A program made the translations under genes and the position numbers. Below are positions 35,267-49,474 of a DNA stretch of 64,000 nt, piece after piece. The notes beneath the pieces are model-generated. The model searched no databases, was not told where the DNA came from, and saw only the letters and a program-made list of their open reading frames with translations. Numbering within the stretch: position 1 is the first letter of the stretch; each line of letters opens with the position of its first letter. The stretch comes from Duodenibacillus sp. (GTDB taxonomy: Bacteria > Pseudomonadota > Gammaproteobacteria > Burkholderiales > Burkholderiaceae_F). The DNA lies in assembly GCA_017628205.1 (NCBI GenBank), contig JAGBZO010000009.1:40188-104187 (forward strand). The letters run 5' to 3'.

Positions 35267-36222
35267 GCCGTCACCTCCTTGTATGCGTTCCATACGTCGT
35301 CCACGCTCGGAACGACCCCCTTGTCACCCACCGTCTTGCAGGGGCCTTCGGATACCAAACCGATCCATGCGGCGGGAGTCGACACGATAATGCCGACCGA
35401 AGGAACCGCCAACGCGGCGCCCAGATGCGCCAAACCGGTATCGACGCCAAACGCCGCCTTCGCGCCTTGCAACACCGTGGCGCACTGGGCCAAATTCAAC
35501 TTGGGCAAGACCATCGCGTTCGGAATATACGAAGCGATGCGCGTCACGCACTCACGTTCCTTCTCGTTACCCCAGAACAACACGCTCTTGATCCCTTCGT
35601 TGATCAGGCGACAACCGATTTCCACCCAACGATCCTCGGGCCACAACTTGTCGTCGCGACTGGTGTTGACGGCAAACGCCGCATAGGCTCCTTCGATTTG
35701 GACGGGCATCGGCGCGACGGTCTTGAGTCCGAAACGCGGTTTTTTGTCGTCGATTTCATAGCCCAAACAATCGGCCGCCATCATTCGGTAACGGCGCACG
35801 GCCGTGAGACTTTCCGGCATGCGACGCGTCTCGTCGTACATGAAACTGGCCAAGGGCTCGCGAATCGTGTCGCGCGAATAACCGATCGAGTGCGATCGCG
35901 CCCAACGCGCGACCATGGCCGAACGAACCAGCCCTTGCAAATCGATCACGATGTCGTACTTTTCCTGACGCAAAGCCTGACGCAGCGCGCCGATTTCACT
36001 TCGCGTTTTTGCGCTGAACAACGACTTGCGCCAACGACGGAACGCCGTGAACACGCAACGATCGACAAACGGGGACAGCGTCGGAATATCACGGAACGAC
36101 TCCTCCACAACCCAATCGATACGCGCATCCGGATAGGCCTTCTTGATGTCGTAAGCCACCGGCAACGCATGAACGATATCCCCCATAGAAGAGGATCGGA
36201 TAATCAAAATTTTCTTTGTCAT
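35263..36222 (-). CDS. waaC: Lipopolysaccharide heptosyltransferase I
   Basis: 319-residue GT9 enzyme adding the first heptose to Kdo of the LPS inner core. The start KILIIRSSSMGDIVHALPVA is diagnostic, with DIVIDLQGLVRSAMVARWA, the ADP-heptose contact SRDDKLWPEDRW and FGVDTGLAHLGAALAVPSVGI. It is coupled to pgi upstream and waaA downstream by 4-bp overlaps. The ADP-heptose donor is made by HldA/GmhB encoded at 48551-50052, beyond the polyene-like cluster. Confidence 0.96.
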   Translation of the reverse strand: MTKKILIIRSSSMGDIVHALPVAYDIKKAYPDARIDWVVEESFRDIPTLSPFVDRCVFTAFRRWRKSLFSAKTRSEIGALRQALRQEKYDIVIDLQGLVRSAMVARWARSHSIGYSRDTIREPLASFMYDETRRMPESLTAVRRYRMMAADCLGYEIDDKKPRFGLKTVAPMPVQIEGAYAAFAVNTSRDDKLWPEDRWVEIGCRLINEGIKSVLFWGNEKERECVTRIASYIPNAMVLPKLNLAQCATVLQGAKAAFGVDTGLAHLGAALAVPSVGIIVSTPAAWIGLVSEGPCKTVGDKGVVPSVDDVWNAYKEVTA

Positions 36223-37625
36223 TGCATTCCTTCTTCGACACGGCGACTCAGCAACTTGCCGAGTTCGACGCCGGGCTGGTCGAACGGATTGATGTTCAAA
36301 AGCGTGCCCAACATGGTCGTTTTGTGTTCGTACATCGCCATCAGCGCGCCCAAGCGTTTCGGGGTCAACTCGTCGATCTCGAAAGTGGACACGGCGTTGC
36401 CGTACGGGTCATCCTCATGACGGGTGATCAGCGCCTCGGCCTGGGCTTTGGCGTTGGCCAAGAGAACCCGATGCAAGGCGTCGTGCTTGTGGCCCGAACT
36501 AGTGCAGTACAGCAAATCGATGGAGGAGTCGACCGTCCCTTCTCGCAACCACTGATAGAACGAGTGCTGCGACTCGTTGCCGTGTCCGCCCCAAACGCTT
36601 TGTCCCGTAAAGCCTTCCACTCGTTGGCCGTGCAACGTACGATTTTTGCCCAGGCTCTCCATCTCGAGTTGCTGCAACCACTGCACCATCACGCGCAAGC
36701 GCTCATCATACGGCAAGAAACAATGCGTCTTCATGTCGTTTTGATTGGCGTTCCAGTAACTGAGCAAGGCAAGGTTCAACGGCAAATTCTTTTCTTTCGG
36801 CGCGTTCATGGCGTGGCAGTCCATGGCGTGGGCACCGTCCAACAACTCGCGAAATACCTTTGAACCCAAAGCGATGGCGATCGGGAAACCGACCGCGCTC
36901 CAAACGGAAAAGCGACCTCCCACCCAATCCCAGATGGGGAAGTAATTTTCCCGAGGCAAACGCATTTGTCGCGGCGCGTCGGAATTGGCCGATACGAGAA
37001 GCATGTGATACGCACGGTCTTTGTTGACAATGCCTGCGCGTGCAAACCACTCGTCGACAGCCGCGGCATTCACGGCGGTTTCTCGCGTCGTAAAGCTCTT
37101 GGACGAAACGACAACCAACGTCTTGAACGGATTGAGTCCGCTCGTCACACGTTCAAAAATCGTACCGTCGACCGCCGACAGAAAATGCAAGCGAATCGGC
37201 ATGTTCGGCTTTTGCAAGGCATAATAAACGGCACGCGGACCGACGTCCGAACCGCCGATCCCCACGTTGATCACGTCGGTAATCGAGTCGCCACGACAGC
37301 CAGTCCAAACCCCGGATCGAATGTCGTCGGTACGTGCGCACAGGCGTTCAAGCACGTCTTGAACCTGAGCGTGAAACGGCGCGTTTTCAGACGGGTTGCG
37401 CAACGACGTATGCAACGCCGCACGTCCTTCGCTGACATTGACGACGCTGCCTTGTTGCATTTCACGATTTTGTTCCAGAACGCCTTTTTCGTCGGCCAAT
37501 GCCAATAATTCCCTGTATTGTTGCGCGTCGATGCGCTGGCGGGAAATGTCCAATCGAATACCGCAGGCTTCCATCTTTTCGACAGGCATGCTGTCGCGAA
37601 GCAACGGTCGCAGTTTGTCCTTCAT
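36219..37625 (-). CDS. pgi: Glucose-6-phosphate isomerase
   Basis: 468-residue isomerase, shorter than the 549-residue E. coli enzyme because of N-terminal and loop trimming. Both PROSITE-type regions are present: DWVGGRFSVWSA (near 239) and GTLLNINPFDQPGVELGK (near 440). The active-site segment reads VWGGHGNESQHSFYQWL where E. coli has a WGEPGTNGQH-type motif, so the usual Glu is Gly here. Some bacterial enzymes tolerate WGG, so this does not prove inactivity. First gene of the pgi-waaC-waaA-thiD group; divergent from the polyene-like cluster. Confidence 0.93.
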   Translation of the reverse strand: MKDKLRPLLRDSMPVEKMEACGIRLDISRQRIDAQQYRELLALADEKGVLEQNREMQQGSVVNVSEGRAALHTSLRNPSENAPFHAQVQDVLERLCARTDDIRSGVWTGCRGDSITDVINVGIGGSDVGPRAVYYALQKPNMPIRLHFLSAVDGTIFERVTSGLNPFKTLVVVSSKSFTTRETAVNAAAVDEWFARAGIVNKDRAYHMLLVSANSDAPRQMRLPRENYFPIWDWVGGRFSVWSAVGFPIAIALGSKVFRELLDGAHAMDCHAMNAPKEKNLPLNLALLSYWNANQNDMKTHCFLPYDERLRVMVQWLQQLEMESLGKNRTLHGQRVEGFTGQSVWGGHGNESQHSFYQWLREGTVDSSIDLLYCTSSGHKHDALHRVLLANAKAQAEALITRHEDDPYGNAVSTFEIDELTPKRLGALMAMYEHKTTMLGTLLNINPFDQPGVELGKLLSRRVEEGMQ

Positions 37626-37779: not shown

Positions 37780-38952
37780 ATGCGTAACCAGAGCCCCATA
37801 TACGTGCAAGCCGTCGGCTGCGTCTGTGCCGACGTTCTTTGCATCAATCAATTGCGCGACGCCTTGTTCCAAAACCAACCTTCGGGCATCAAGCCCAACG
37901 CTCGAGTGTTGCCCGATCGTCTCGTTCATTACGGAATGGTTGAACTTGCCGACGAAGACGCCGACTTGCCTCGCACGTTGAGACTGGTTCGTCACGCCTT
38001 ACGTCAACTTGGCTCTCAGGCGGGCCCGCTCGATCGGTTCGAACCCCATCGAATCGGCATCGTTCTCGGCTCTTCGACGTCCGGCCTCAAGGAAACGGAA
38101 GCGGCCATGCAAACGCGCCATCTTCAAGGCTCTCTGCCCGATACGTTCGACATTCGAACGCTCAACTTGCACGAGCCCGCCCGATTCGTCGCGCAAGAGC
38201 TCGGCGTCACCGGCCCCGTTTACACGATCAGCAATGCGTGCGCCTCGGGCGCCATGGCCGTCATCTCCGCCGTTCGCCTGTTGCAATCGGGGTTGGTCGA
38301 CGCCGTCGTCACGGGCGGCATCGACGGCGCCAGCCGTTTCACGACCGCGGGGTTCGACGCGTTGAGCGCCATGAGTCACGAGCCCTGTCTTCCGTTTTGC
38401 GCCGAACGCGCCGGCATCAATCTCGGCGAAGGCGGCGCCCTGTTGTTGCTCACGCGCGAGCCGTCCGACATTTGTGTCAGCGGTTGGGCCGAAACGAGCG
38501 ACGCGCACCATATCTCCGCCCCTCATCCGGAAGGCAAAGGGGCCGTCGCCTGCATGCGAGAAGCGCTTCGTACCGCCCGCTTGACTCCCGATCAGATCGA
38601 CTTCGTCAGTGCGCACGGAACGGGCACGCATCACAACGACGCGGCCGAATCGTCGGCGATTCACGCCGTGTTCGGCGAACAAACGCCCGTCGCCTCTTTG
38701 AAGCATTTGAGCGGGCACACGTTGGCCGGCGCCGGGGCGCTTCAAGGCGCCATCGCCTACGCTCTTTTGACAAACAACGACGAGGGCCTTTTGCCCGCCA
38801 ACACGACCGACGGAACGCTTGATCCGAGTCTTGCGCCCATCAACCTGATTCGAGAACCCGTTCGCCTGCGCCGCCCCTTGAGGCACGTTCTGTGCAACGC
38901 GTTCGCTTTCGGCGGATCAAACGCCACGCTCGTTTTTTCACGTCATTCGTAA
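37780..38952 (+). CDS. apeO: Beta-ketoacyl-ACP synthase (ApeO-like, KS partner of a chain-length factor)
   Basis: About 390-residue condensing enzyme. The full Cys-His-His triad is present: SNACASGAM (Cys near 150), SAHGTGTHHNDAAES (first His) and LKHLSGHTLAGAG (second His); GIVLGSSTSGLKE lies upstream. In aryl-polyene systems such a KS pairs with a chain-length factor to extend the polyene with malonyl-ACP. The ATG at 37780 has no clear ribosome site; an in-frame TTG at 37756 is possible. First gene of a plus-strand cluster whose members mostly overlap or abut. Confidence 0.88.
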   Translation: MRNQSPIYVQAVGCVCADVLCINQLRDALFQNQPSGIKPNARVLPDRLVHYGMVELADEDADLPRTLRLVRHALRQLGSQAGPLDRFEPHRIGIVLGSSTSGLKETEAAMQTRHLQGSLPDTFDIRTLNLHEPARFVAQELGVTGPVYTISNACASGAMAVISAVRLLQSGLVDAVVTGGIDGASRFTTAGFDALSAMSHEPCLPFCAERAGINLGEGGALLLLTREPSDICVSGWAETSDAHHISAPHPEGKGAVACMREALRTARLTPDQIDFVSAHGTGTHHNDAAESSAIHAVFGEQTPVASLKHLSGHTLAGAGALQGAIAYALLTNNDEGLLPANTTDGTLDPSLAPINLIREPVRLRRPLRHVLCNAFAFGGSNATLVFSRHS

Positions 38953-38960
38953 AACCCACT

Positions 38961-39449
38961 ATGTATCACGTCGCATCCCTGCCAGCCGTTTCGGATCGTA
39001 TCGAGAGTCTGCTCCCGCACGCCGACCCCATGTTGTTATTGGATCGCATCATTGGCGCCGATCAGGACGCATGTCTTACGGAAACAGTCATCGGTCGACG
39101 GCACGCGTTATTCTTAAGAGACGACCGTACGGTCAGCAACACTTTATTAATTGAATTGATGGCGCAAACCGTCGGCGTGACGGCCGGCATGCGACTCAAA
39201 GCCCAAGGCGAACATCCAAAAGTCGGCTTTTTACTCGGATCTCGCCATTTCGCGTGCGACTGCGACTGTCTGAACGAAGGCGATCTGATTCGCGTGCACG
39301 TCAAGTGTCTTTACTTTTCCGACGGCGAGTTGCCGAGTCAATTTCAATGTACCGCTTACCGCAACGATGAAACGGAACCGGTCGGAACGGCTAATTTGAC
39401 GGTCTATCAACCTAAGGATTTATCTGCATGGAACAACTCAGCGTCTTGA
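38961..39449 (+). CDS. apeP: ApeP-like hotdog dehydratase subunit
   Basis: 162-residue hotdog-fold protein. LLPHADPMLLLDRIIGAD at the N-terminus and TLLIELMAQTVGVTAGMRLKAQG match FabZ/FabA-type dehydratases, keeping the helix Glu and Gln. The catalytic GHFPxxP His motif is replaced (segment HALFLRDDRTVSN), so alone it looks incomplete. APE dehydratases act as an ApeI:ApeP heterodimer; the His could come from the ApeI-like domain fused to the ligase at 45080-46813. It overlaps the ketoreductase gene by 22 bp. Confidence 0.83.
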   Translation: MYHVASLPAVSDRIESLLPHADPMLLLDRIIGADQDACLTETVIGRRHALFLRDDRTVSNTLLIELMAQTVGVTAGMRLKAQGEHPKVGFLLGSRHFACDCDCLNEGDLIRVHVKCLYFSDGELPSQFQCTAYRNDETEPVGTANLTVYQPKDLSAWNNSAS

Positions 39450-40156
39450 TTACGGGCTCTTCTCGAGGTATTGGACGCGCCGTCGCGCTTCGTTTGGCGC
39501 AAAGCGGCTATCGGATTGTCGTTCACGGCTCCCGTCCGAGCGACGATTTGAACGAAACCGTCCGACTGATCAACGAACTGGGCGCGAACTGTCGCTCGCT
39601 TTGCTTTGACGTCTCGGATCGTGAAGCCGCCCGCAACGCGTTGCTTGCCGACATTGAAACGCACGGGATGTATTACGGCATCGTTTGCAACGCCGGCATC
39701 AGCGCCGACTGCACTTTTGCCGGCATGAGCGAGGACGATTGGGATCGCGTCATTCGAACCGATCTGGACAGTTTTTTCAACGTTGTTCAACCTCTGGTCA
39801 TGCCGTTGGTACGCCGCCGCAAACCCGGTCGCATCGTTGTCATGAGCTCCGTCTCCGGCGTCGTCGGCAATCGCGGACAAGTCAATTACTCAGCCGCCAA
39901 AGCCGGCTTGATCGGAGCGGCCAAAGCGTTGGCGACCGAGTTGGCCGGACGTCGCATCACCGTCAACGCGGTAGCTCCCGGACTGATTGAAACCGACATG
40001 ATCACGCAGGAAGTGCTTGATCACGCTTTGCCCGCCATCCCCATGGGACGCACCGGGCGCCCCGAAGAAGTCGCCGGCCTCGTCAATTTCCTGATGAGCG
40101 AGGAAGCGTCCTACATCACCCGCCAGGTCATTCAGGTCAACGGAGGCTTGTCATGA
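39428..40156 (+). CDS. apeQ: 3-ketoacyl-ACP reductase (ApeQ/FabG-like)
   Basis: 242-residue short-chain dehydrogenase reducing beta-ketoacyl-ACP with NADPH. Cofactor loop GSSRGIGRAVALRL (about 11-24), CNAGIS, catalytic Ser in VMSSVSGVVGNRG and YSAAKAGLIGAAK (Tyr/Lys), VAPGLIETDM. All catalytic residues are present. The stop overlaps the next ketosynthase by 4 bp. No enoyl reductase is found in the cluster, consistent with a product that keeps conjugated double bonds. Confidence 0.9.
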   Translation: MEQLSVLITGSSRGIGRAVALRLAQSGYRIVVHGSRPSDDLNETVRLINELGANCRSLCFDVSDREAARNALLADIETHGMYYGIVCNAGISADCTFAGMSEDDWDRVIRTDLDSFFNVVQPLVMPLVRRRKPGRIVVMSSVSGVVGNRGQVNYSAAKAGLIGAAKALATELAGRRITVNAVAPGLIETDMITQEVLDHALPAIPMGRTGRPEEVAGLVNFLMSEEASYITRQVIQVNGGLS

Positions 40157-41397
40157 AGCGACGCGTCGTCATTACGGGTTTCGGCGCCATCAGCCCTCTT
40201 GGGAACGATTGGCCCTCCGTCAAGGCCAAACTGTTGTCTCAAACCAATGCGGTGCAAGTCATCGAGCAATGGAAGGACATCGAAGGTTTGCGCACGCGAT
40301 TGGGCTGTCCGGCCGCCGACTTCGACTTGCCTTCCGACAGATTCACTCGCAAGACCATGCGTTCGATGGGACGAGTCGCCCTTTTGGCCGTCCGAGCCAC
40401 GGACATGGCATTGGCCGACGCCGACATCGACAAGAGCTTGTTGCGCGGAGGCGAATTGGGCATTGCCTACGGCTCCTCCACCGGCAGTCCGGATTCGTTT
40501 TCCGACATTGCCAACCTGATTTCGCATCACAGCACCCAGGGCATGAACGCCAACACGTACATTCGCATGATGAGCCATACCGCGCCGGTCAACATCGGCG
40601 TCTTTTTCGGCATCAAAGGGCGCATCATCACGACGAGCTCGGCTTGCACGTCCAGCTCGCAGGCCATCGGTTACGCGTTCGAAACCATTCAATCGGGCAA
40701 GCAAAAAGTCATGATTGCCGGCGGCTCCGAAGAATTGCATGTCAGCGGCTCGGCCACGTTCGACACGCTGTTCGCCACCAGCACGGAATACAACGATCGT
40801 CCCTCTCTGTCGCCGCGTCCTTACGACGCCGCTCGGGACGGATTGGTGATCGGCGAAGGCGCCGGTACGCTGATTCTCGAAGAGCTTGAACACGCCCTCG
40901 CGCGCGGAGCCAAAATTTATGCTGAAATCGTCGGTTTCGGCACGAACTCCGACGGAACCCACATTACCAATCCGCAATCGGAACAAATGGCGCAAGCCAT
41001 GCGTTTGGCTTTAAAAGACGCCGACCTCGCGCCGGAAACGATCGGCTACGTCAATACGCACGGAACTGCAACCGATCGCGGCGACGAAGCTGAAAGTCAT
41101 GCGACTTTTGCTGTTTTTGGAGGCGCTGTTCCCGTTTCGACGCTTAAAAGTTACATGGGGCACACTTTGGGGGCTTGCGGCGCTCTCGAAGCCTGGATGA
41201 GCATCCAAATGATGAACGAAGGATGGTTCTGTCCCACGATCAATTTGACGCAACGCGCTCCCGAATGCGCCGCGCTCGATTACATCGTGAACGAGCCCCG
41301 TCGAATCGAAACCGATTACGTCATGAGCAATAATTTCGCCTTCGGCGGCATCAACACCTCGCTGATCTTCCGCCGTTGGGCCAATTCTCAGGAATAA
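40153..41397 (+). CDS. apeR: Beta-ketoacyl-ACP synthase (ApeR-like)
   Basis: 414-residue ketosynthase, a second complete condensing enzyme. Catalytic Cys in TTSSACTSSSQAIGYA (near 168), His in VNTHGTATDRGDEAES and TLKSYMGHTLGACGALE. It differs from the first KS in being FabF-like full length. In E. coli the homologous homodimeric KS makes the first condensation from the aryl starter. Placed right after the ketoreductase with an ATGA overlap. Confidence 0.9.
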   Translation: MKRRVVITGFGAISPLGNDWPSVKAKLLSQTNAVQVIEQWKDIEGLRTRLGCPAADFDLPSDRFTRKTMRSMGRVALLAVRATDMALADADIDKSLLRGGELGIAYGSSTGSPDSFSDIANLISHHSTQGMNANTYIRMMSHTAPVNIGVFFGIKGRIITTSSACTSSSQAIGYAFETIQSGKQKVMIAGGSEELHVSGSATFDTLFATSTEYNDRPSLSPRPYDAARDGLVIGEGAGTLILEELEHALARGAKIYAEIVGFGTNSDGTHITNPQSEQMAQAMRLALKDADLAPETIGYVNTHGTATDRGDEAESHATFAVFGGAVPVSTLKSYMGHTLGACGALEAWMSIQMMNEGWFCPTINLTQRAPECAALDYIVNEPRRIETDYVMSNNFAFGGINTSLIFRRWANSQE

Positions 41398-41406
41398 GGC
41401 AGCTTT

Positions 41407-42468
41407 ATGAGTCATACCATGGACATCCTGACGGCGCTCAAACAAGCCCAGCGCATCGCGTTCGCTCCTTTCGTTTTTCAGGCTACCGTTTCGGCCCTGC
41501 GGTTGGGGCTGCTCAAAACGTTGCACGCGTCCGATCGACCGTTGCCCGTGTCGGCCGTGGCCGAACGCTCCGGCGTCAGCGAGTACGGCGTCAAAGTCCT
41601 ACTCGAAACGCTGTTGGTAGCGGACGTCGTTTCCCATGACGAAGACGGCTATCGACTCACCAAAGTCGGCGAAGTCTTGTTGTTCAATCCCATGACGGAA
41701 GTGAATCTCAACTTCACCGCCGACGTTTGCTACAAAGGCCTTGCCTATCTAACCGACGCCGTTGTCACCGGAACGCCGTCCGGTCTTAAAGAGTTGGGGC
41801 CTTGGCCGACGATTTACCCCGCCCTGAGTCAGCTGCCGGAGCCAGCTCGCGACAGTTGGTTCAAATTCGACCACTACTACTCTGACCAAGTGTTCAATCG
41901 GTGCGCCGGCTGGATCGATCGACATCTCAAGCCCGCCCGCTTGTTTGACATCGGCGGCAACACGGGGCGCTTTGCCGGCACCTGTTTGCAACGCATGCCC
42001 TACGCGAACGTCACCATCGTCGACTTGCCCGAACAGTGTCAATTAGCCCGAGACAATCCCGACTTGGCCGCCGTTCGCGACCGTTTGCAAACGGCCAGCG
42101 TCAACTGGCTCGATCCCGACGCGCTGCCTCAGACCGACACCAAGGCCGACGTCATTTGGATGAGCCAGTTTCTGGACTGCTTCTCACCCGAACAGGCCGT
42201 CAGCATTCTTCGACGCGCCAAACAACTGCTCAAGCCCGAGGGCAAAATCGTCATCCTCGAATGCCTTTGGGACCGACAGGAGCATGAGGCCGCCCGTTTG
42301 AGCATCGTTTGCACCTCACTCTATTTCACGGCCATCGCCAACGGCAACTCACGCTTCTTTACGCATCCCGAATTGCTCGCGATCGTCAAAGAAGCCGGTC
42401 TTGTCGTCGAAGAAACGCAAGACGGGCTGGGCATCTCGCACACGTTGCTCGTTTGCCGTTCCGAATGA
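41407..42468 (+). CDS. SAM-dependent methyltransferase of the polyene-like cluster
   Basis: 353 residues. The N-terminal half (about 1-90) is a winged-helix dimerisation domain (VSAVAERSGVSEYGVKVLLETLL), as in O-methyltransferase-type enzymes. The SAM motif is LFDIGGNTGRFAGTC (about 178-192), with VDLPEQC as the following acidic loop. In the APE pathway a methyltransferase modifies the aryl head group; C- versus O-methylation cannot be read from sequence. It starts 9 bp after the ketosynthase, which suggests co-transcription. Confidence 0.82.
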   Translation: MSHTMDILTALKQAQRIAFAPFVFQATVSALRLGLLKTLHASDRPLPVSAVAERSGVSEYGVKVLLETLLVADVVSHDEDGYRLTKVGEVLLFNPMTEVNLNFTADVCYKGLAYLTDAVVTGTPSGLKELGPWPTIYPALSQLPEPARDSWFKFDHYYSDQVFNRCAGWIDRHLKPARLFDIGGNTGRFAGTCLQRMPYANVTIVDLPEQCQLARDNPDLAAVRDRLQTASVNWLDPDALPQTDTKADVIWMSQFLDCFSPEQAVSILRRAKQLLKPEGKIVILECLWDRQEHEAARLSIVCTSLYFTAIANGNSRFFTHPELLAIVKEAGLVVEETQDGLGISHTLLVCRSE

Positions 42469-42482
42469 GTCGCGAGGTCGTC

Positions 42483-43208
42483 ATGCATTTTTACGTCGAA
42501 TCGTTCAGCGCACGAACCGCAACGACAGCACGAGCAGACTCCTGGATGCAATGGTCTCGAACGGGATTGTTGCCGCCCGATGAAACGCCGCCCGTTTGTG
42601 CCGTGCCCCCCTTGTTGCGACGACGTCTGACGCCTTTGGGTCGGTTGGCGTTGGGCGCGTTGGCCGAGTTGACGCCCAAACCCAACGAGCCGATGATTTT
42701 CGCCTCCAGTTGGGGCGACATTGCCCGCTCGTTTTCGCTCATGGAAACGTTGGCGCGTGATAACGAAATCAGCCCGACCCATTTTTCGGCGTCCGTTCAC
42801 AACGGCATCGGGGCCGTCGCCAGCATCTGGCAGGGTAATACGACCGCCTACAAAGCGATCTGCGCCGAGGAGTTCACAACCGAGTCGGCTCTGTTGGAAG
42901 CGTGGCTCATGCTAGGCGCCGACCACGAGTCGGTCGTGCTCGTGCGGTATGAGGACGTCATGCCCGAAGCCTGGTATCACGACGGCCTGAAGGATACGCC
43001 GACAAGCGCTTTTGCCTGGGCCGTGCGACTAACGCGTGAGCAACCGCCTCAATCGCTTTGCCGCTTCGGTCTGACGGCCTCTCAATCGTCTTGCGACGCC
43101 GTGCGCGCCCCGAGCCGCTACCACCTTGAAGATTTGGCCTTCTTGCTCTCGGACGCACCCGAATTCGTCCATTCCGACGATCAACGCGCCTGGATCTGGA
43201 GGAAATGA
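42483..43208 (+). CDS. apeC: Chain-length-factor-like ketosynthase fragment (ApeC-like, Ketoacyl-synt_2)
   Basis: 241 residues resembling only the N-terminal half of a ketosynthase, the Ketoacyl-synt_2 type. THFSASVHNGIGAVASIWQGN is the family hallmark. The second KS half with the two catalytic His is absent, so it cannot condense alone and most likely pairs with the ApeO-like KS as chain-length factor. The residue at the usual nucleophile position appears to be Cys (AICAEEFTTES) by a rough alignment. The ATG at 42483 has GAGG 7 nt upstream; ATG 42465 overlaps the previous stop and is the alternative. Confidence 0.78.
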   Translation: MHFYVESFSARTATTARADSWMQWSRTGLLPPDETPPVCAVPPLLRRRLTPLGRLALGALAELTPKPNEPMIFASSWGDIARSFSLMETLARDNEISPTHFSASVHNGIGAVASIWQGNTTAYKAICAEEFTTESALLEAWLMLGADHESVVLVRYEDVMPEAWYHDGLKDTPTSAFAWAVRLTREQPPQSLCRFGLTASQSSCDAVRAPSRYHLEDLAFLLSDAPEFVHSDDQRAWIWRK

Positions 43209-43987
43209 ACGTGCAACCGTCGTCCAAACTGAACTATGTCTGGCGCGTCGTCGCCACCGGATTTTGTTTTTTAACGTTCTCTTGCATGGGACTTGCTTTT
43301 CGTTTCTTGGCCTGTCCCTACGTCAGTTTGGCCGCCCGAACGCAACGAGAGCGCGAGCTCAAAGCTCGTCGGATCGTCAGACACAGTTTCGCCTGGTTCG
43401 TTCGGCTTATGCAACGAACGGGAATCTTGCAATGGCGCGTTCGCGGACGCGAGCGACTTCACGGCGGCGCCCAACTGGTTTGCCCTTCGCACCCGACCCT
43501 GATCGACGTCGTGTTGACCATGAGCATGATCGACAACGCGAACTGCATCGTCAAAGCCGATTTGAAGCGTTCGTTTGCCATGAGTTCCCCCATTGCGACC
43601 ACCGGCTACATCGCGAACGACTCCGGATCGGAGTTGATCGAAGCGTGCGCACAAAGCCTCAAAGCCGGCGACACGCTGATCATCTTTCCCGAAGGCACCC
43701 GAACCCGCCCGGGCAAGGAGCCCAAACTGCATCACGGCGCCGCGGCGACGGCGCTGTTGGCCGCCATGCCGATCACGCCAGTCGTCATTACATGCACGCC
43801 GCCAAGTTTGATGAAGGGAATTCCATGGTACCGCATCCCACCTAGTAAAATGTCGTTTGAGATTGACGTGCTCGAGCCGATCGATATCGAGCCTTTTTTA
43901 CAAATCGAACGTCAACACGGGCGCCCCATCGCGGTTCGGCGACTAACCGAATCGCTCAAATCCGCCCTGTTCAAAAATAACCATTGA
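43205..43987 (+). CDS. PlsC-type 1-acyl-glycerol-3-phosphate acyltransferase-like protein
   Basis: 260-residue membrane-associated acyltransferase. An N-terminal hydrophobic segment (VVATGFCFLTFSCMGLAFRFLA) is followed by the HX4D motif in CPSHPTLIDVVLTM (about 95-108) and FPEGTRTRPG. In APE loci a protein of this type is thought to attach or transfer the polyene chain, but its acceptor is not known. ATGA overlap with the preceding gene. Confidence 0.85.
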   Translation: MNVQPSSKLNYVWRVVATGFCFLTFSCMGLAFRFLACPYVSLAARTQRERELKARRIVRHSFAWFVRLMQRTGILQWRVRGRERLHGGAQLVCPSHPTLIDVVLTMSMIDNANCIVKADLKRSFAMSSPIATTGYIANDSGSELIEACAQSLKAGDTLIIFPEGTRTRPGKEPKLHHGAAATALLAAMPITPVVITCTPPSLMKGIPWYRIPPSKMSFEIDVLEPIDIEPFLQIERQHGRPIAVRRLTESLKSALFKNNH

Positions 43988-43995
43988 GAATCAAA

Positions 43996-44259
43996 ATGAC
44001 CGATCAAGCATTGCAGCAAGAACTCAAAGAACTCATCATCGAGGCTTTGAATTTGGAAGACGTTACGCCCGAGGACATTGAGGCCGATGCTCCTTTGTTC
44101 GGCGACGGTTTGGGACTGGACTCCATCGACGCGTTGGAACTGGGGCTGGCATTGAAGAAGCAATACGGCATCACCATGTCGGCCGAAAGCGAAGACAACA
44201 AAAAGCACTTTGCCAGTCTGAACGCCTTGGCCCAGTACGTAGCCGCCAATCGCCAATAA
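43996..44259 (+). CDS. apeE: Acyl carrier protein (ApeE-like)
   Basis: 87-residue ACP. The phosphopantetheine Ser lies in GLGLDSIDALELGLAL (near 39), in a typical acidic four-helix frame (start MTDQALQQELKEL). The ATG at 43996 is preferred over an upstream in-frame TTG at 43984. One of two ACPs in the cluster; likely carries the growing polyene. Confidence 0.9.
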   Translation: MTDQALQQELKELIIEALNLEDVTPEDIEADAPLFGDGLGLDSIDALELGLALKKQYGITMSAESEDNKKHFASLNALAQYVAANRQ

Positions 44260-44278
44260 CCACGCAGGGAGTGTCGTC

Positions 44279-44533
44279 ATGGTTACCGAACAACAAATTT
44301 TCGAGAAAATCAAAAGCATCCTGAGCAATACGTTCGAAGTGCCCGAGGAAAAAATCACGCTTGAAGCCAAACTCTACGACGATCTGGAAATCGACTCGAT
44401 CGACGCCGTCGACATGTTGGTCGAGCTCGCCCCGTTCTTGGGCAATAAGAAAATTTCGCCGGCCGCTTTCAAGCAAGTACGTACCGTCGGCGACGTTGTA
44501 AAGGCCATTCACGCCCTGTTGCAAGCCGAGTAA
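44279..44533 (+). CDS. apeF: Acyl carrier protein (ApeF-like)
   Basis: 84-residue ACP with the attachment Ser in LEIDSIDAVDMLVEL (near 40). It differs clearly from the other ACP, so the two probably have separate partners, e.g. aryl starter versus extension. GGGAG lies before the ATG. The next gene starts 4 bp after its stop. Confidence 0.9.
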   Translation: MVTEQQIFEKIKSILSNTFEVPEEKITLEAKLYDDLEIDSIDAVDMLVELAPFLGNKKISPAAFKQVRTVGDVVKAIHALLQAE

Positions 44534-44537
44534 AGCC

Positions 44538-45083
44538 GTGTTGCAAAAGGCTCTGCTGTCAATCGTTTTTGCGTTGTATCCGCTGCTCGTTTATGTCGGG
44601 CTTCGATCCGGATGCTTGCATTGGGTTGCCGCGGGCCTTTGTGTTTTTGCCCTCTGGCGCGCGTTCGTTCAACGCACACGCCTGGCAACGGCATCGGCTG
44701 CATGCGCCGTCGCTTTGGCCGCGGTCGCGCTGTATTTCAACGATGCCGTTGCGCTCAAGCTGTACCCCTTCGTCATGAACGTCGCGTGGCTTTTCGGTTT
44801 TCTCATCTCGCTGCAAAGCGTGCCGGCCATCGAACGTTTCGCCCGCCTAAAGGTGTCGGATTTACCTCCGTCGGCCGTTGCGCACTGCCGCCAGATGACA
44901 CAACTGTGGTGTGTCTTTTTCGTTCTCAACGGTTTGATTGCTTTGGACTCCGCTCTGTTTCGTTCCGAACAGTGGTGGACGCTTTATAACGGCGCCATTG
45001 CCTACGGCCTGATCGGTTTGATGTTTCTTTTCGAATGGTGCGTTCGTCGATATCGACAGGCGCACGACTGCGACACAAAATGA
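44538..45083 (+). CDS. Integral membrane protein of the polyene-like cluster (COG4648-like)
   Basis: 181 residues with about five hydrophobic helices and conserved AIERFARLKVSDLPP in the middle. It matches the predicted membrane protein found in APE loci (ApeG-type). Starts at GTG 44538, four bases after the ACP stop, and overlaps the ligase gene by ATGA. Function unknown. Confidence 0.75.
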   Translation: MLQKALLSIVFALYPLLVYVGLRSGCLHWVAAGLCVFALWRAFVQRTRLATASAACAVALAAVALYFNDAVALKLYPFVMNVAWLFGFLISLQSVPAIERFARLKVSDLPPSAVAHCRQMTQLWCVFFVLNGLIALDSALFRSEQWWTLYNGAIAYGLIGLMFLFEWCVRRYRQAHDCDTK

Positions 45084-46813
45084 CCCATTCGCTTTTTGTC
45101 TATACCTCCGAGCTGTTGACCCGCCCCGAACTGGACGAGCGCACGTGCGTTCTCTTGCCGGGACAAGTCAAAACGTGGGGGCAATTCGTGCGAGACGTCA
45201 ACGGTTGGAAGTTGGCGTTTCAAGCCGGCGGCTTTCAACGCGTCGCTCTATACGGCGAAAACGTTTACGACTCGGCGGCCCAACTGTTCGGCGCTTGGGC
45301 AGCCAAAGTCACGGCCGTTTTGCCTTCGGACACCTCGCCGGGCACCTGTCGTCGCTTGATCGAACAGGGCGTCGTCGAGGCCGCTGCCGGCCGATTCCAT
45401 CCCGACGTCTTCACCCTGCCCATCGTGACGCCCCTGCCCACGCAGGAGCCTTGTCGCGATCGTTTCGATGAGAATTTGCCGTTGGTCGAACTGTTCACAT
45501 CCGGTTCGACCGGGGAACCCAGCCGCATCGTCAAACGACTGCGTCAACTGTTCGTCGAAGTGCAGAGCATCGAAACCCGACGTCACGGCGCAAACGCCGT
45601 GTCCGACAGCGACACTTGCATCATTTCAACGGTCAGCCAGCAACATATCTACGGACTGCTGTTTTTCCTGTTGTGGTCGTTTTCTTCCGCACGCATCGTT
45701 TGGGGAGAACGTATCGAATACCCCGAACAACTGATCGAACGCTTGAGTCTGGCGCCCAACTGGATTTGGATCGCCAGCCCCGCTCACCTCAAACGCCTGC
45801 CGACCCATCTGGATTGGGAGGGCGCGCGCTCAAAAATCTCGACGATCTACTCGTCCGGCGGTCCGCTCTTTGAAGAAGGACTGCTCCACGTACACCAATT
45901 GCTCGGAAAAACACCCGTGGAATTATTGGGCAGCTCGGAGTCGGGCGGCATCGCATGGCGTCAACGCGCAGTCGATGCCGATGCGCGTATCTCGGGCACA
46001 GCTTGGCAGGCCTTGCCCGCCGTTCAATGGCGTTGCGAAAACGGTCTGTTGGTCATTCGCAGCCCTCAATTGACCTCGGACAATTGGGAAACCACAAGTG
46101 ACAAAATCGTTCCGCTTGACGAGCATGCGTTCGAACACGTCGGCCGAGCCGATCGTATCGTCAAAATTGAAGAAAAGCGCGTCTCGCTCTCGCAAATCGA
46201 AAACCTGTTGACCGCCGATCCCTTGATTGAAACGGCCAAAGCCTTTCAACTCAAGGATCCCAAACGTTCTTTGGCCGTCGTTGCGTGTCCTAGCCGCGAA
46301 GGCGTGCGGCTGATGCGAACCCACGGAAAATCCACGCTGGTCAAGACGTTGAAAAACCTGTTGGGTCAACACGTCGAGCGCGTTTGCCTGCCCCGTTACT
46401 GGCGCTTCACTTGGGCGTTGCCGGAAAACTCCATGGGCAAGACGACGGTCGACGCCGCCGAACGTTTGTTCGAACCGACGGCCGTTCAAGCCGTGGCTCA
46501 AGAACGCGATGCCACTCACGCGACGCTGTTGATCACGGTGGCTCGCTCATGCCCTTATTTCGAGGGGCATTTCCCGAACTTCCCGATCTTGCCCGGCGTC
46601 ACGCAACTGGACTGGGCCGATCGCCTGGCGCGTCAACTCTTTCCCGGACGGGGACGACTGGCCGGCGTCAAAACCCTGAAATTCATGCAACCCGTTTTCC
46701 CAAATTCCACCGTTGTTTTAGACTTGACCTTGCGCGACGACGGTTCGGTTGATTTCGCGTACGCATCCACTTCCGATGAACCTCACGCCAAGGGTCGATT
46801 GCTCTATGTCTGA
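45080..46813 (+). CDS. apeH: Fused aryl/acyl-ACP AMP ligase - ApeI-like dehydratase
   Basis: 577 residues. About 1-465 is an AMP-forming ligase: P-loop VELFTSGSTGEPS (near 131), LLGSSESGGIAWR and the catalytic Lys in ENSMGKTTV near 453. It would adenylate an aromatic acid and load it onto an ACP. About 485-577 is a hotdog dehydratase with YFEGHFPNFPILPGVTQ, where the catalytic His is intact. In E. coli these are separate proteins (ApeH and ApeI). There is no stop or frameshift between them, so I read one fused protein. It overlaps the glycosyltransferase gene by 8 bp. Confidence 0.85.
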   Translation: MTHSLFVYTSELLTRPELDERTCVLLPGQVKTWGQFVRDVNGWKLAFQAGGFQRVALYGENVYDSAAQLFGAWAAKVTAVLPSDTSPGTCRRLIEQGVVEAAAGRFHPDVFTLPIVTPLPTQEPCRDRFDENLPLVELFTSGSTGEPSRIVKRLRQLFVEVQSIETRRHGANAVSDSDTCIISTVSQQHIYGLLFFLLWSFSSARIVWGERIEYPEQLIERLSLAPNWIWIASPAHLKRLPTHLDWEGARSKISTIYSSGGPLFEEGLLHVHQLLGKTPVELLGSSESGGIAWRQRAVDADARISGTAWQALPAVQWRCENGLLVIRSPQLTSDNWETTSDKIVPLDEHAFEHVGRADRIVKIEEKRVSLSQIENLLTADPLIETAKAFQLKDPKRSLAVVACPSREGVRLMRTHGKSTLVKTLKNLLGQHVERVCLPRYWRFTWALPENSMGKTTVDAAERLFEPTAVQAVAQERDATHATLLITVARSCPYFEGHFPNFPILPGVTQLDWADRLARQLFPGRGRLAGVKTLKFMQPVFPNSTVVLDLTLRDDGSVDFAYASTSDEPHAKGRLLYV

Positions 46814-47552
46814 TTTCCGTCCGTGCTTTCTGATTCCCGTGTACAACCACGAGCACGCCGTGGGCCAGGTCGTCGAACAACTGCTGCCCTACGCCTTGCC
46901 GATCGTCTTGGTCGACGACGGCTCTTGCGATTCCTGCGCCGAGGTGTTGGATCGACTTCAGGCGGCACATCCGTCGGTCACCTTGATTCGTCATCATCGC
47001 AACGGCGGCAAGGGGCAGGCTTGCATGACGGGATTTTTCGCCGCGGACAATCTCGAATGCACGCACGCCTTTCAACTCGATGCCGACGGTCAACATGATC
47101 TCTCGGCGGTTCCGGCCTTTCTCGACGCCGCTCGCAACCGCCGTGACGCGTTGATTTGCGGTTACCCGATTTATGACGAAAGCGTCCCCGCTTCGCGTCA
47201 ACAGGGACGCAAAGTCAGCAATTGGTGGGTGGCGTTCAACGCCCGTTCAAACGCCTTCAAAGACGCGATGTGCGGCTTTCGCGTCTACCCGATCGAACCT
47301 TTGTTGCGCATTGTGAAGACGACGCGCTTGTCCAAGCGCATGGAATTCGACTGCGAAATTTTGGTGCATTGGGCTTGGCAGGACCTTCCCGTTGAAAATC
47401 ATCCGGTCAAAGTGACCTACCCGACGGACGGCGTCTCGCACTTCCGCATGATTCGAGACAACGTGCAAATCAGTTGCATGTACGCCAAATTGTGTTGCCA
47501 AATGCTCGCCAAACGTTCGATGCTGAGCGCCCGCCGTCATCATCATGTCTGA
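46806..47552 (+). CDS. GT2-family glycosyltransferase of the polyene-like cluster (N-terminal half of ApeJ type)
   Basis: 248 residues with a GT-A fold: CFLIPVYNHEHAV start, VDDGSCDSC, the metal-binding QLDADGQHD, and MCGFRVYPIEPLLRI. In APE loci the corresponding protein is a glycosyltransferase joined to an acyltransferase; here the two parts are separate ORFs overlapping by 8 bp. Likely transfers a sugar or lipid-anchor residue; the acceptor is unknown. Confidence 0.85.
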   Translation: MSDFRPCFLIPVYNHEHAVGQVVEQLLPYALPIVLVDDGSCDSCAEVLDRLQAAHPSVTLIRHHRNGGKGQACMTGFFAADNLECTHAFQLDADGQHDLSAVPAFLDAARNRRDALICGYPIYDESVPASRQQGRKVSNWWVAFNARSNAFKDAMCGFRVYPIEPLLRIVKTTRLSKRMEFDCEILVHWAWQDLPVENHPVKVTYPTDGVSHFRMIRDNVQISCMYAKLCCQMLAKRSMLSARRHHHV

Positions 47553-48501
47553 TCGTCATTGGTCCAACCTTCAAGAAACCACCTCCGTCTTCGGGATCAA
47601 GTTGTTGTACTGGATCTTCCGATTGGGCGGACGCACGACGTTCATGTTGACCTTGTGGCCCGTGATTATCGGCTACTGGTTGGCCGTTCCCCGCGTACGA
47701 CACGCTTCCGCCGATTATTTCGATCGCCTACATAAAAGTGGTCATTTTCCGTCAAAACCCAGGATCTTTCATCAATTTCGTCATATTTTTCATTTTGCCG
47801 ATACGATTCTCGATAAAATCCTAGCCGTTTCCGGTCATTTCTCCGCACGTGATTTGGAGGTTGACGGACTTCAGGAACTGCTTGCCGATCCGAGCGGCGG
47901 CATCCTGATCACGAGTCATACGGGATGTCTCGAATTGTGCAGCATGTTGCGCGAGCGCTTTAGCTCCCGCAAAGTGCGCATACTCGTTCACACGAAGCAC
48001 GCGCAACAATTCAAACGCATCATCGCCCGCATCAATCCGACCTTCCATCTCGATCACATTGAAGTCACCGAGCTCACTCCCGCCGTTGCCATCGCTTTGG
48101 AAGAGTGCGTCCGCGAAGGCGACTTCATCGTGATCGTCGGCGACCGCACGCCTATCGCCTCCCAAGCCGTCTGTCAGGCTGAATTTTTGGGGCAAAGCGC
48201 CTCGTTCCCCATTGGAGCGTTCCTCCTGGGCTTGTTGTTGAACTGTCGGATTTGGAGCATGATTTGCACGCGTAACCCTTCAAAGCGTACTCGATACGCG
48301 TTGTACTTCCGCCCTTTGTGGTCGCCGCACCCCATCCCTCGCTCGCAACGCCAACATCTATTTCGAAACTTGGCTCAAAGCTATGCGATCGAGCTGGAAC
48401 GTCGACTGTCTCAAAGCCCGTACGACTGGTTCAACTTCTTCGATTTCTGGCAAGCAGAGCAGCCCGCCCGCGACGCCCAAAAGGTAGAACATCAAGGGTA
48501 A
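47545..48501 (+). CDS. LpxL/LABLAT-type acyltransferase (C-terminal half of ApeJ type)
   Basis: 318-residue lipid A-type acyltransferase. The HX4E motif is in TSHTGCLELCSML (near 132) and GDRTPIAS follows. The N-terminal amphipathic segment suggests membrane contact. It probably acylates the lipid anchor or head sugar of the cluster product. Last gene of the cluster: hldA starts 50 bp later and no thioesterase, LolA or MMPL gene follows. Confidence 0.85.
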   Translation: MSDRHWSNLQETTSVFGIKLLYWIFRLGGRTTFMLTLWPVIIGYWLAVPRVRHASADYFDRLHKSGHFPSKPRIFHQFRHIFHFADTILDKILAVSGHFSARDLEVDGLQELLADPSGGILITSHTGCLELCSMLRERFSSRKVRILVHTKHAQQFKRIIARINPTFHLDHIEVTELTPAVAIALEECVREGDFIVIVGDRTPIASQAVCQAEFLGQSASFPIGAFLLGLLLNCRIWSMICTRNPSKRTRYALYFRPLWSPHPIPRSQRQHLFRNLAQSYAIELERRLSQSPYDWFNFFDFWQAEQPARDAQKVEHQG

Positions 48502-48550: not shown

Positions 48551-49474
48551 ATGCAAAAAGAACTTCTCGCCTCCAAGCGCCTGCTCGTTGTGGGGGACTC
48601 CATGCTCGACCGCTACTGGTTCGGCGATGCCAACCGCATCTCGCCCGAAGCGCCCGTTCCCGTTGTTCGAGTCGTACGTACTCAAGACCGCTTGGGCGGC
48701 GCGGCCAACGTTGCGTTGAACATCAAGAATCTCGGAGCGCAGGCCTCGCTCATGAGCGTTGTCGGTCACGATGAAGCGGGCGCCACGATTCGTCACCTGT
48801 TGACGCAAGCCGGCATCACGCCAAAACTGCATGTGGATCCGAGTCTGAAAACCACGGTCAAATTGCGTTTGCTCGCACGTCAACAGCAGATCGTTCGCGT
48901 GGACTTTGAAGAAGCGCCCCAACACGAAGTGCTGGCCTCGTTATTGACGCAGTTCGAACAGGTCGTCGGCAATTACGACGCCTTGCTGCTGTCGGACTAC
49001 GGCAAAGGCGGGCTCAGTCACATCACCCGCATGATCGAAGTGGCTCGCGCCCGCAACATCCCGGTTTTGATCGATCCCAAGGGCAGCGATTACGATCGCT
49101 ACAAGGGAGCTACGGTCATCACGCCCAACCGCTCCGAACTGGAGTTGGTCGTCGGACCTTGGAAAAACGAAGACGATCTGAACCGAAAAGCGCAGAAACT
49201 GCGCGAGCAGCTGGAACTCAAAGCTTTGCTTTTGACTCGTAGCGAAGAAGGCATGACGCTCTTTACCGAAGACAGCATCGTCACCATTCCCGCTCAAGCG
49301 CGCGAAGTTTTCGACGTGTCGGGGGCTGGCGACACCGTCATTGCCGTTTTGGCTTCCATGATCGCGGCCGGCGTCCCCATGCAAGAAGCTGTCCAAACAG
49401 CCAACCGTGCCGGCGGCATCGTCGTTGGCAAACTCGGAACGGCTTCGGTCAGTTACGCCGAGTTGTTCGAGTGA
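48551..49474 (+). CDS. hldA: D-glycero-beta-D-manno-heptose-7-phosphate kinase (HldA, kinase part of HldE)
   Basis: 307-residue ribokinase-family enzyme making heptose-1,7-bisphosphate for LPS core. VVGDSMLDRYWFGDANRISPEAPVPVV and GGAANVALNI at the start; the catalytic Asp is in DVSGAGDTVIA near the C-terminus. It ends after the kinase domain; the cytidylyltransferase-like (HldC) domain of E. coli HldE is absent, so ADP-transfer must come from another gene. Shares an operon with gmhB (27-bp gap). Confidence 0.95.
   Translation: MQKELLASKRLLVVGDSMLDRYWFGDANRISPEAPVPVVRVVRTQDRLGGAANVALNIKNLGAQASLMSVVGHDEAGATIRHLLTQAGITPKLHVDPSLKTTVKLRLLARQQQIVRVDFEEAPQHEVLASLLTQFEQVVGNYDALLLSDYGKGGLSHITRMIEVARARNIPVLIDPKGSDYDRYKGATVITPNRSELELVVGPWKNEDDLNRKAQKLREQLELKALLLTRSEEGMTLFTEDSIVTIPAQAREVFDVSGAGDTVIAVLASMIAAGVPMQEAVQTANRAGGIVVGKLGTASVSYAELFE

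What the first reader, a model, noticed from the sequence alone, without database searches (positions are those of the whole stretch)
37780..48501. Aryl-polyene-like cluster with complete core chemistry but no exporter, carrier or thioesterase in place
Thirteen mostly overlapping or abutting genes encode two complete ketosynthases, a chain-length-factor-like protein, ketoreductase, two dehydratase modules, two ACPs, an aryl-ACP ligase, methyltransferase, PlsC-type and LpxL-type acyltransferases, a glycosyltransferase and a membrane protein. No enoyl reductase is present, fitting a polyene product. In the E. coli APE locus a thioesterase (ApeK), a LolA-like protein (ApeL) and an MMPL exporter (ApeM) are also encoded, but here hldA follows 50 bp after the last gene. 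Either these functions are elsewhere, are replaced by the LPS machinery next door, or the product stays unexported.
Basis: partly seen in the sequence, partly recalled or inferred. Interest (0 to 1): 0.7.

Follow-up and report, generated by a model that had tools for sequence, protein, structure and literature searches.

The report
Pigment-lipid gene cluster, exporter moved elsewhere
This is a full core set of genes for making an aryl polyene (a yellow membrane pigment), and the export genes that seem to be missing were found at a second place in the same genome, so the gap looks like a split gene cluster and not a lost pathway.

Summary
The 13-gene cluster at 37780-48501 is real and matches the E. 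coli CFT073 aryl polyene (APE) locus gene by gene: ApeO-P-Q-R, then B-C-D-E-F-G, an ApeH-ApeI fusion, and ApeJ split in two. An ApeM-type exporter and an ApeL-type LolA carrier lie side by side on another contig (C23, about 71.7-74.6 kb), between tatC and a tRNA-Lys array. Pfam's MMPL model misses this exporter; an ApeM profile finds it at E=1e-125. Six species of the genus have L-M at this spot, two still have it directly after ApeJ2, and two species without APE show neither insertion. Exporter and core trees agree on supported forks. No dedicated ApeK or ApeN was found; both are also missing from some other APE clusters of the family. Verdict: an APE cluster with a detached, diverged export module, a variant of a known kind. 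The LPS neighbours look like a landing site. Open: no chorismate lyase was detected.

The parts
37780..38952 (+). ApeO ketosynthase (elongating KS), C-H-H complete
   Evidence: 40% to Ec ApeO over 399 columns; motifs NACAS, HGT, SGHT
38961..39449 (+). ApeP hotdog dehydratase (start codon inferred)
   Evidence: Pfam ApeP-like 2e-16; 30% to Ec ApeP
39428..40156 (+). ApeQ ketoreductase (FabG-like)
   Evidence: 57% to Ec ApeQ; FabG models over cut-off; Y..AK
40153..41397 (+). ApeR ketosynthase (initiation KS)
   Evidence: 58% to Ec ApeR; NCBIfam PRK09116 over cut-off
41407..42468 (+). ApeB methyltransferase
   Evidence: 46% to Ec ApeB; FlxJ-family model, below cut-off
42483..43208 (+). ApeC chain-length factor (no AC motif; start codon inferred)
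   Evidence: Pfam Ketoacyl-synt_2 1.7e-45; 26% to Ec ApeC
43205..43987 (+). ApeD PlsC-type acyltransferase
   Evidence: 33% to Ec ApeD
43996..44259 (+). ApeE acyl carrier protein
   Evidence: 65% to Ec ApeE
44279..44533 (+). ApeF acyl carrier protein
   Evidence: 51% to Ec ApeF
44538..45083 (+). ApeG membrane protein (COG4648 type by its match to ApeG)
   Evidence: 36% to Ec ApeG; no Pfam hit
45080..46813 (+). ApeH-ApeI fusion: aryl-ACP ligase plus hotdog dehydratase
   Evidence: residues 135-467 match ApeH, 493-561 match ApeI; Pfam AMP-binding and ApeI-like
46806..47552 (+). ApeJ1 family 2 glycosyltransferase (start codon inferred)
   Evidence: 46% to Ec ApeJ residues 4-237
47545..48501 (+). 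ApeJ2 LpxL-like acyltransferase
   Evidence: 35% to Ec ApeJ residues 246-550; no Pfam hit
36219..37625 (-). pgi, upstream border of the insertion site
   Evidence: Pfam PGI; next to hldA in G011 and G012, which lack APE
48551..49474 (+). hldA, downstream border of the insertion site
   Evidence: Pfam PfkB; lies beyond ApeJ2 in G015-G018 as well

Best explanation
The window holds the biosynthetic and lipid-attachment half of an aryl polyene lipid system; the export half (an ApeL-like LolA carrier and an ApeM-like RND/MMPL-type exporter) lies at a second locus in the same genome. Inferred mechanism, by analogy with the E. coli and Xenorhabdus systems: ApeH loads an aryl acid on ApeE; ApeR starts and ApeO-ApeC extend with malonyl units; ApeQ reduces and ApeP/ApeI dehydrate, and with no enoyl reductase the chain stays a polyene; ApeB methylates the ring; ApeD, J1 and J2 attach the acid to a glycolipid; ApeM, driven by the proton gradient, moves the APE lipid out of the inner membrane, and ApeL carries it over the periplasm. 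Shown here: the gene content, the second locus, and its shared descent and co-occurrence with the core. Inferred: the chemistry and the export step.
For: ApeM profile A1, built without any sequence of this genus: G000:C23:71708-73936, E=1e-125, positions 15-764 of 768. ApeL profile A2: C23:74017-74583, E=1.6e-28, directly upstream on the same strand. In the genus 8 of 10 genomes have ApeC and the same 8 have this M; the 2 without ApeC show only matches inside AcrB-size proteins. Across the family 34 of 34 ApeC genomes have an M hit at E<=1e-30, against 6 of 33 without ApeC, all six in genus g2. In G013 and G014 L-M directly follows ApeJ2. In G000 and G015-G019 (6 of 6) L-M lies between tatC and tRNA-Lys; in G015-G018 it is about 11-19 kb from the APE cluster on the same contig and strand (positions). 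G011 and G012, without APE, show no APE gene between pgi and hldA and no L-M between tatC and tRNA-Lys. The M tree makes all 8 genus rows one clade (99/99), and its supported forks inside the genus recur in the tree of joined core proteins. D317-Y318 and D688-Y689 are invariant in 8 of 8 genus M proteins. Profile A6 of these 8 matches the hopanoid transporter HpnN (5khn) at 5.4e-16.
Against: No experiment links the C23 L-M pair to APE. The pair is not on the window's contig. In both trees G000, G013 and G014 form an unresolved fork, so 'moved once out of the operon' is not proven. The G000 exporter has no Pfam match, so a changed cargo is possible. ApeN gave no credible hit in the genus, and no dedicated ApeK was found in the window's genome. 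M-like genes can exist without APE: six g2 genomes.
Confidence: 0.85

Rival explanations
1. The APE lipid leaves by the LPS route (MsbA/Lpt) because the cluster sits in a heptose/Kdo locus; the C23 L-M pair serves another lipid.
For: APE lies between pgi and hldA in 5 of 5 genomes where both borders are in view (G000, G015-G018; in G016 with about 3 kb of other sequence before pgi), and waaA-waaC-pgi lie upstream. ApeJ2 is LpxL-like.
Against: L-M co-occurs with ApeC in 8 of 8 genus genomes and is missing with it in 2 of 2. In G013 and G014 L-M directly follows ApeJ2. The LPS neighbours are there without APE in G011 and G012. MsbA and Lpt were not studied here.
Confidence: 0.07
2. The product is not exported and stays in the inner membrane; the cluster is decaying.
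For: ApeA, K, L, M and N are absent from the cluster itself.
Against: 13 of 13 frames are intact and the motifs checked in O, R, Q, E and F are kept; the layout is conserved in the genus; an exporter and carrier exist elsewhere.
Confidence: 0.05
3. Assembly or binning artefact: C23 and C38 come from different organisms.
For: The genome is an assembly in 50 contigs, 85.66% complete.
Against: In G015, G016, G017 and G018 APE and the tatC-side L-M are on one contig. G000's M falls inside the genus clade. Contamination is listed as 0.4%.
Confidence: 0.03

Closest known systems
Aryl polyene cluster of Escherichia coli CFT073 (apeA-R, c1204-c1186)
   Same: All 13 window genes match E. coli Ape proteins and account for O,P,Q,R,B,C,D,E,F,G,H,I,J; closely packed genes on one strand.
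   Different: Order is O-R then B-J instead of A-R; H-I fused; J split; A, K and N not found; L and M at another locus.
Aryl polyene clusters of sister genus g2 (G001, G002, G004)
   Same: H-I fusion, split J1/J2, same core as far as the fetched stretches reach.
   Different: L, M and an N-like gene sit inside the cluster between J2 and O; no ApeB seen in the fetched 20 kb; a second M-like paralogue without the Asp-Tyr pairs is present.
HpnN hopanoid transporter (MMPL/RND lipid exporter, PDB 5khn)
   Same: Profile of the genus M proteins matches residues 604-856 of its 883 at 5.4e-16.
   Different: Different cargo (hopanoids); M is about 750-770 aa.
Flexirubin cluster (NCBIfam FlxB, FlxJ, LolA2 models)
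   Same: ApeQ, ApeB and the C23 ApeL score against FlxB, FlxJ and LolA2 models.
   Different: All three scores are below the curated cut-offs.

Membership tests
Aryl polyene biosynthetic cluster | KS ApeO with chain-length factor ApeC | tested here: met
Aryl polyene biosynthetic cluster | Second KS ApeR, KR ApeQ, dehydratases ApeP and ApeI, no enoyl reductase | tested here: met
Aryl polyene biosynthetic cluster | Aryl-ACP ligase ApeH and ACPs ApeE/ApeF | tested here: met
   the ApeH part is fused to ApeI
Aryl polyene biosynthetic cluster | Lipid attachment enzymes ApeD and ApeJ | tested here: met
   J split in two genes
Aryl polyene biosynthetic cluster | Export genes ApeL and ApeM in the cluster | tested here: not met
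   absent in the window; present on contig C23
Aryl polyene biosynthetic cluster | Thioesterase ApeK | tested here: not met
   three 4HBT_2 genes in the genome: one beside tolQ/tolR-like frames (names recalled), one in front of an mla-like operon, one at C21. Best match to an ApeK 55.8 bits at 28.6% identity; a second gene reaches 31.6% over only 57 residues. Genome 85.66% complete.
Aryl polyene biosynthetic cluster | LolB-like ApeN | tested here: not met
   0 credible hits in 10 genus genomes, one 42-residue hit at 6e-4 in G019 set aside; also 0 in G043 of genus g14
Aryl polyene biosynthetic cluster | 4-hydroxybenzoate supply by chorismate lyase UbiC | tested here: inconclusive
   PF04345: 0 of 13 genomes; of 14 control genomes it rang only in E. 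coli, so a divergent enzyme could be missed
Aryl polyene biosynthetic cluster | KS and ACP genes group with APE families in a phylogeny that includes non-APE families | not tested
   trees made here hold APE rows only
Aryl polyene biosynthetic cluster | Yellow aryl polyene lipid made | not testable with these tools
   needs a culture or heterologous expression
ApeM/MMPL-type lipid exporter (C23 protein) | Homology over full length to ApeM | tested here: met
   profile positions 15-764 of 768, E=1e-125; one clade with M of G013 and G014 that follows ApeJ2
ApeM/MMPL-type lipid exporter (C23 protein) | Pfam MMPL (PF03176) match | tested here: not met
   0 Pfam families at 1e-3; the other five detached M proteins also show none
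ApeM/MMPL-type lipid exporter (C23 protein) | Asp-Tyr pairs of the proton relay (role recalled) | tested here: met
   D317-Y318 and D688-Y689 invariant in 8 of 8 genus rows. Not a strict mark: E. coli ApeM has Asn-Tyr at the second place

The most novel reading that the evidence does not exclude
In this genus the APE export module has become an independent locus at a tRNA-Lys site, where it diverged past recognition by Pfam and does without the LolB-like ApeN and the thioesterase ApeK. It may now carry a changed or wider lipid cargo, and the pigment is built on an aryl starter that does not come from UbiC.
Probability: 0.2. Interest if true: 0.55.

Novelty: new variant of a known kind. Interest (0 to 1): 0.35.

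Why it matters
[quoted passage not shown] A genus in which the same exporter pair follows the operon in two species, is detached in six and is missing with the pathway in two gives a natural argument that L-M is the export module and can work from a distance, without K and N. It also warns that reading the cluster alone, or using the Pfam MMPL model, both call the exporter absent here when it is present.

Tried and rejected
Own-genome MMPL search with PF03176 gave two AcrB-size proteins and SecD and would have wrongly confirmed 'no exporter'. LolA_3 (PF19574) rang nowhere, controls included, and says nothing. 4HBT_2 gave three genes; the best ApeK match is a YbgC-like gene beside frames that I read as tolQ and tolR (names recalled), so I did not count it as ApeK. 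Relatives were not searched for ApeK genome-wide; its absence there rests on tblastn of cluster loci. The second M-like gene of genus g2 was set aside as a different system: no Asp-Tyr pair found in 3 of 3 rows, separate clade. PF00221 ammonia lyase as starter source: 2 of 10 genus genomes, not G000. The taxon could not be named: origins gives only family f1, genus g1. Of the 34 family genomes with ApeC, the surroundings were read for 26: the window, 20 (several cut by contig ends) and 5; G022, G024, G027, G029, G044, G052, G059 and G060 were not. Core tree: 15 genomes, up to 10 proteins each; among genus rows E is missing for G014, O for G013, and O, P, Q for G019; all outgroup rows but E. 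coli lack some proteins. Literature searches for APE with Sutterella, Sutterellaceae and Parasutterella gave 0 papers; these names were guesses at the taxon. Searches listed papers; I opened only PMC8253772, so I make no claim that split APE clusters are undescribed. Gene names such as recA, recX, hisE, yqgF, mlaC-F, waaA, thiD and hldD are recalled from sequence and order; pgi, TatC, MlaA, the PfkB-type hldA and the family 9 glycosyltransferase come from Pfam.
Full report
What is there. The window (G000:C38:40188-104187 of a 1.83 Mb assembly in 50 contigs, 85.66% complete) carries 13 overlapping or closely packed plus-strand genes at 37780-48501. Pfam names KS, ApeP-like and ApeI-like dehydratases, a short-chain reductase, methyltransferase, Ketoacyl-synt_2, acyltransferase, two ACPs, AMP ligase and a family 2 glycosyltransferase; ApeG and ApeJ2 have no Pfam hit. 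BLASTP against the 18 proteins of the E. coli CFT073 APE locus gives a best match for each gene: O, P, Q, R, B, C, D, E, F, G, H-I fused, J as two genes. ApeA, K, L, M and N are matched by none. In E. coli the order is A to R, so the window order O-R then B-J reads as a permutation with K-N gone from the seam. Catalytic motifs are kept in O, R, Q, E and F, and ApeC shows neither an AC nor an HGT motif.

Is the exporter really missing? A Pfam MMPL search of the genome found two AcrB-size proteins and SecD. I then built profiles from ApeM, ApeL and ApeN of clusters that still have them, none from this genus, and searched 16 genomes: the 10 of the genus and 6 relatives. ApeM: G000:C23:71708-73936, E=1e-125, positions 15-764 of 768. 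ApeL: C23:74017-74583, E=1.6e-28, next to it on the same strand. ApeN: none in G000. The C23 ApeM protein (757 aa) has no Pfam family at 1e-3 and one NCBIfam hit, the HAE3 transporter model, far below its cut-off, which explains the earlier miss. The C23 ApeL matches LolA in Pfam (3.5e-8), and both the LolA and flexirubin LolA2 models below cut-off.

Is that pair the APE export module? (a) Within the genus, 8 of 10 genomes have ApeC and the same 8 have this M; the other 2 (G011, 100% complete, and G012, 84%) show only matches inside AcrB-size proteins. (b) Across 67 family genomes, 34 of 34 with ApeC have an M hit at E<=1e-30, against 6 of 33 without it; a Fisher test gives 3e-13, but relatedness makes that too optimistic. 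The profile used there (A5) included the genus rows and the g2 paralogues, so it finds those by construction. All six exceptions are in genus g2; for one of them (G005) the hit was seen to be of the second paralogue type. (c) In G013 and G014 the order is J2-L-M. In G000 and G015-G019 L-M lies between tatC and tRNA-Lys genes, with recA beyond in the five whose contig reaches that far. In G015, G016, G017 and G018 APE and L-M are on one contig, about 11-19 kb apart, same strand (positions). (d) Unoccupied sites: in G011 and G012 pgi and hldA are neighbours (about 240-260 bp between matches) and tatC is followed by the tRNA-Lys genes without L-M; in G014 the tatC site is unoccupied too, while its L-M follows ApeJ2. 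(e) All 8 genus M proteins form one clade (99/99). The supported forks inside it (G015+G017; those with G018; those with G016 and G019) also stand in the tree of joined core Ape proteins. G000, G013 and G014 are an unresolved fork in both, so one or several moves cannot be told apart. (f) Two Asp-Tyr pairs are invariant in the 8. The g2 second paralogue shows none in 3 of 3, though E. coli ApeM itself has Asn-Tyr at the second place. A profile of the 8 finds HpnN, a hopanoid exporter, at 5.4e-16.

A side result. Of the M proteins scanned with Pfam, 4 of 4 in-cluster ones (E. coli, G013, G014, G002) match MMPL, while 0 of 6 detached ones (G000, G015-G019) do; seven other in-cluster M proteins were not scanned. 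Detachment and sequence drift go together in this small sample, which shares ancestry.

How usual is this? In 36 named loci around an ApeR match (L061-L096) from other groups, 24 show M. Of 24 loci that show any H, I or J match, 23 also show M; the exception (L078) rests on one weak glycosyltransferase match of 48 bits. Nine of the 12 loci without M are cut short by contig ends; L076, L078 and L088 have 10 kb before ApeR and still show no M. So L-M in the cluster is the rule in this sample, and PMC8253772 says that ApeGLMN homologues are conserved across APE clusters. In genus g16 of the window's family M is also away from ApeC in 10 of 11 genomes: about 89 kb and more than 1 Mb away on one contig in G051 and G053, on another contig in G052, G054-G056 and G058-G061, where a contig break is an alternative. 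In G058 and G053 M travels with J and L; in G055 J-K-L stay with the core and M is elsewhere. G057 keeps M in the cluster.

Missing K, N and UbiC. In E. coli deletion of apeK only reduces pigment, and in vitro no hydrolysis was seen (PMC8253772; I saw the abstract, section 4 part 1 of 2 and section 10 part 1 of 2). K is also absent between J and L in the three g2 and four g14 clusters seen, and N gave no hit in G043 of g14. So neither is general in the family. That paper says 4-HBA comes from UbiC in E. coli; PF04345 found no UbiC in 13 of 13 genomes tested, ten of the genus and three relatives with APE, and of 14 control genomes rang only in E. coli. The starter source is open.

Mechanism. 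Steps to the ACP-bound polyene are taken from the work on E. coli and Xenorhabdus as reported in PMC8253772 and rest here on orthology only. Attachment by ApeD, J1 and J2 and export by M and L are inferred. The paper itself calls the transport system predicted; it reports that deletions in most core and transport genes abolish pigment, and says that the phenotype of its apeL and apeN mutants may be polar. The structure of the Xenorhabdus APE lipid is known to me only through that paper's mention.

Verdict. The cluster is by all tests made here an APE cluster with a split export module: a variant of a known kind. The relocation pattern and the Pfam-invisible exporter keep some interest.

Noticed in passing
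genus g1 and relatives: No chorismate lyase (PF04345) hit in 13 of 13 genomes tested although 11 of them carry APE genes; the source of the aryl starter is unknown.
   Followed up: partly
L169-L171 (G001, G002, G004), L195 (G005): A second LolA-plus-M-like pair in sister genus g2; in the three genomes checked for it (G001, G002, G004) the M-like protein shows no Asp-Tyr pair. Two small genes upstream in G001 match TraT and DUF5384 models weakly. Cargo unknown.
   Followed up: partly
L166:5139-10487 (G000:C23): A PlsC-type acyltransferase and a 4HBT thioesterase gene sit directly in front of a phospholipid-transport (mla-like) operon, a few kb from the L-M pair; the same order is seen in L168, L174 and L209.
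   Followed up: partly
L184, L188, L052, L186 (genus g16): APE clusters of another genus also appear split, at different seams (before J in some, between L and M in another).
   Followed up: partly
L166:16686-16975, L205, L208, L210: Tandem tRNA-Lys array of 2-3 copies beside tatC; in G000 the L-M pair lies next to it. tRNA genes are common landing sites (recalled).
   Followed up: partly
L081, L083, L087, L089, L090, L092: APE-type loci in bins labelled Brachyspira or Gastranaerophilales show O-P-Q-R on one strand and C-to-M on the other, a divergent arrangement also seen in L074, L082, L084 and L086.
   Followed up: no
L051:15875-16330 (G015): A PEBP/YbhB-like gene (family recalled from the sequence) lies between ApeJ2 and hldA, where the window has only about 50 bp.
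   Followed up: no
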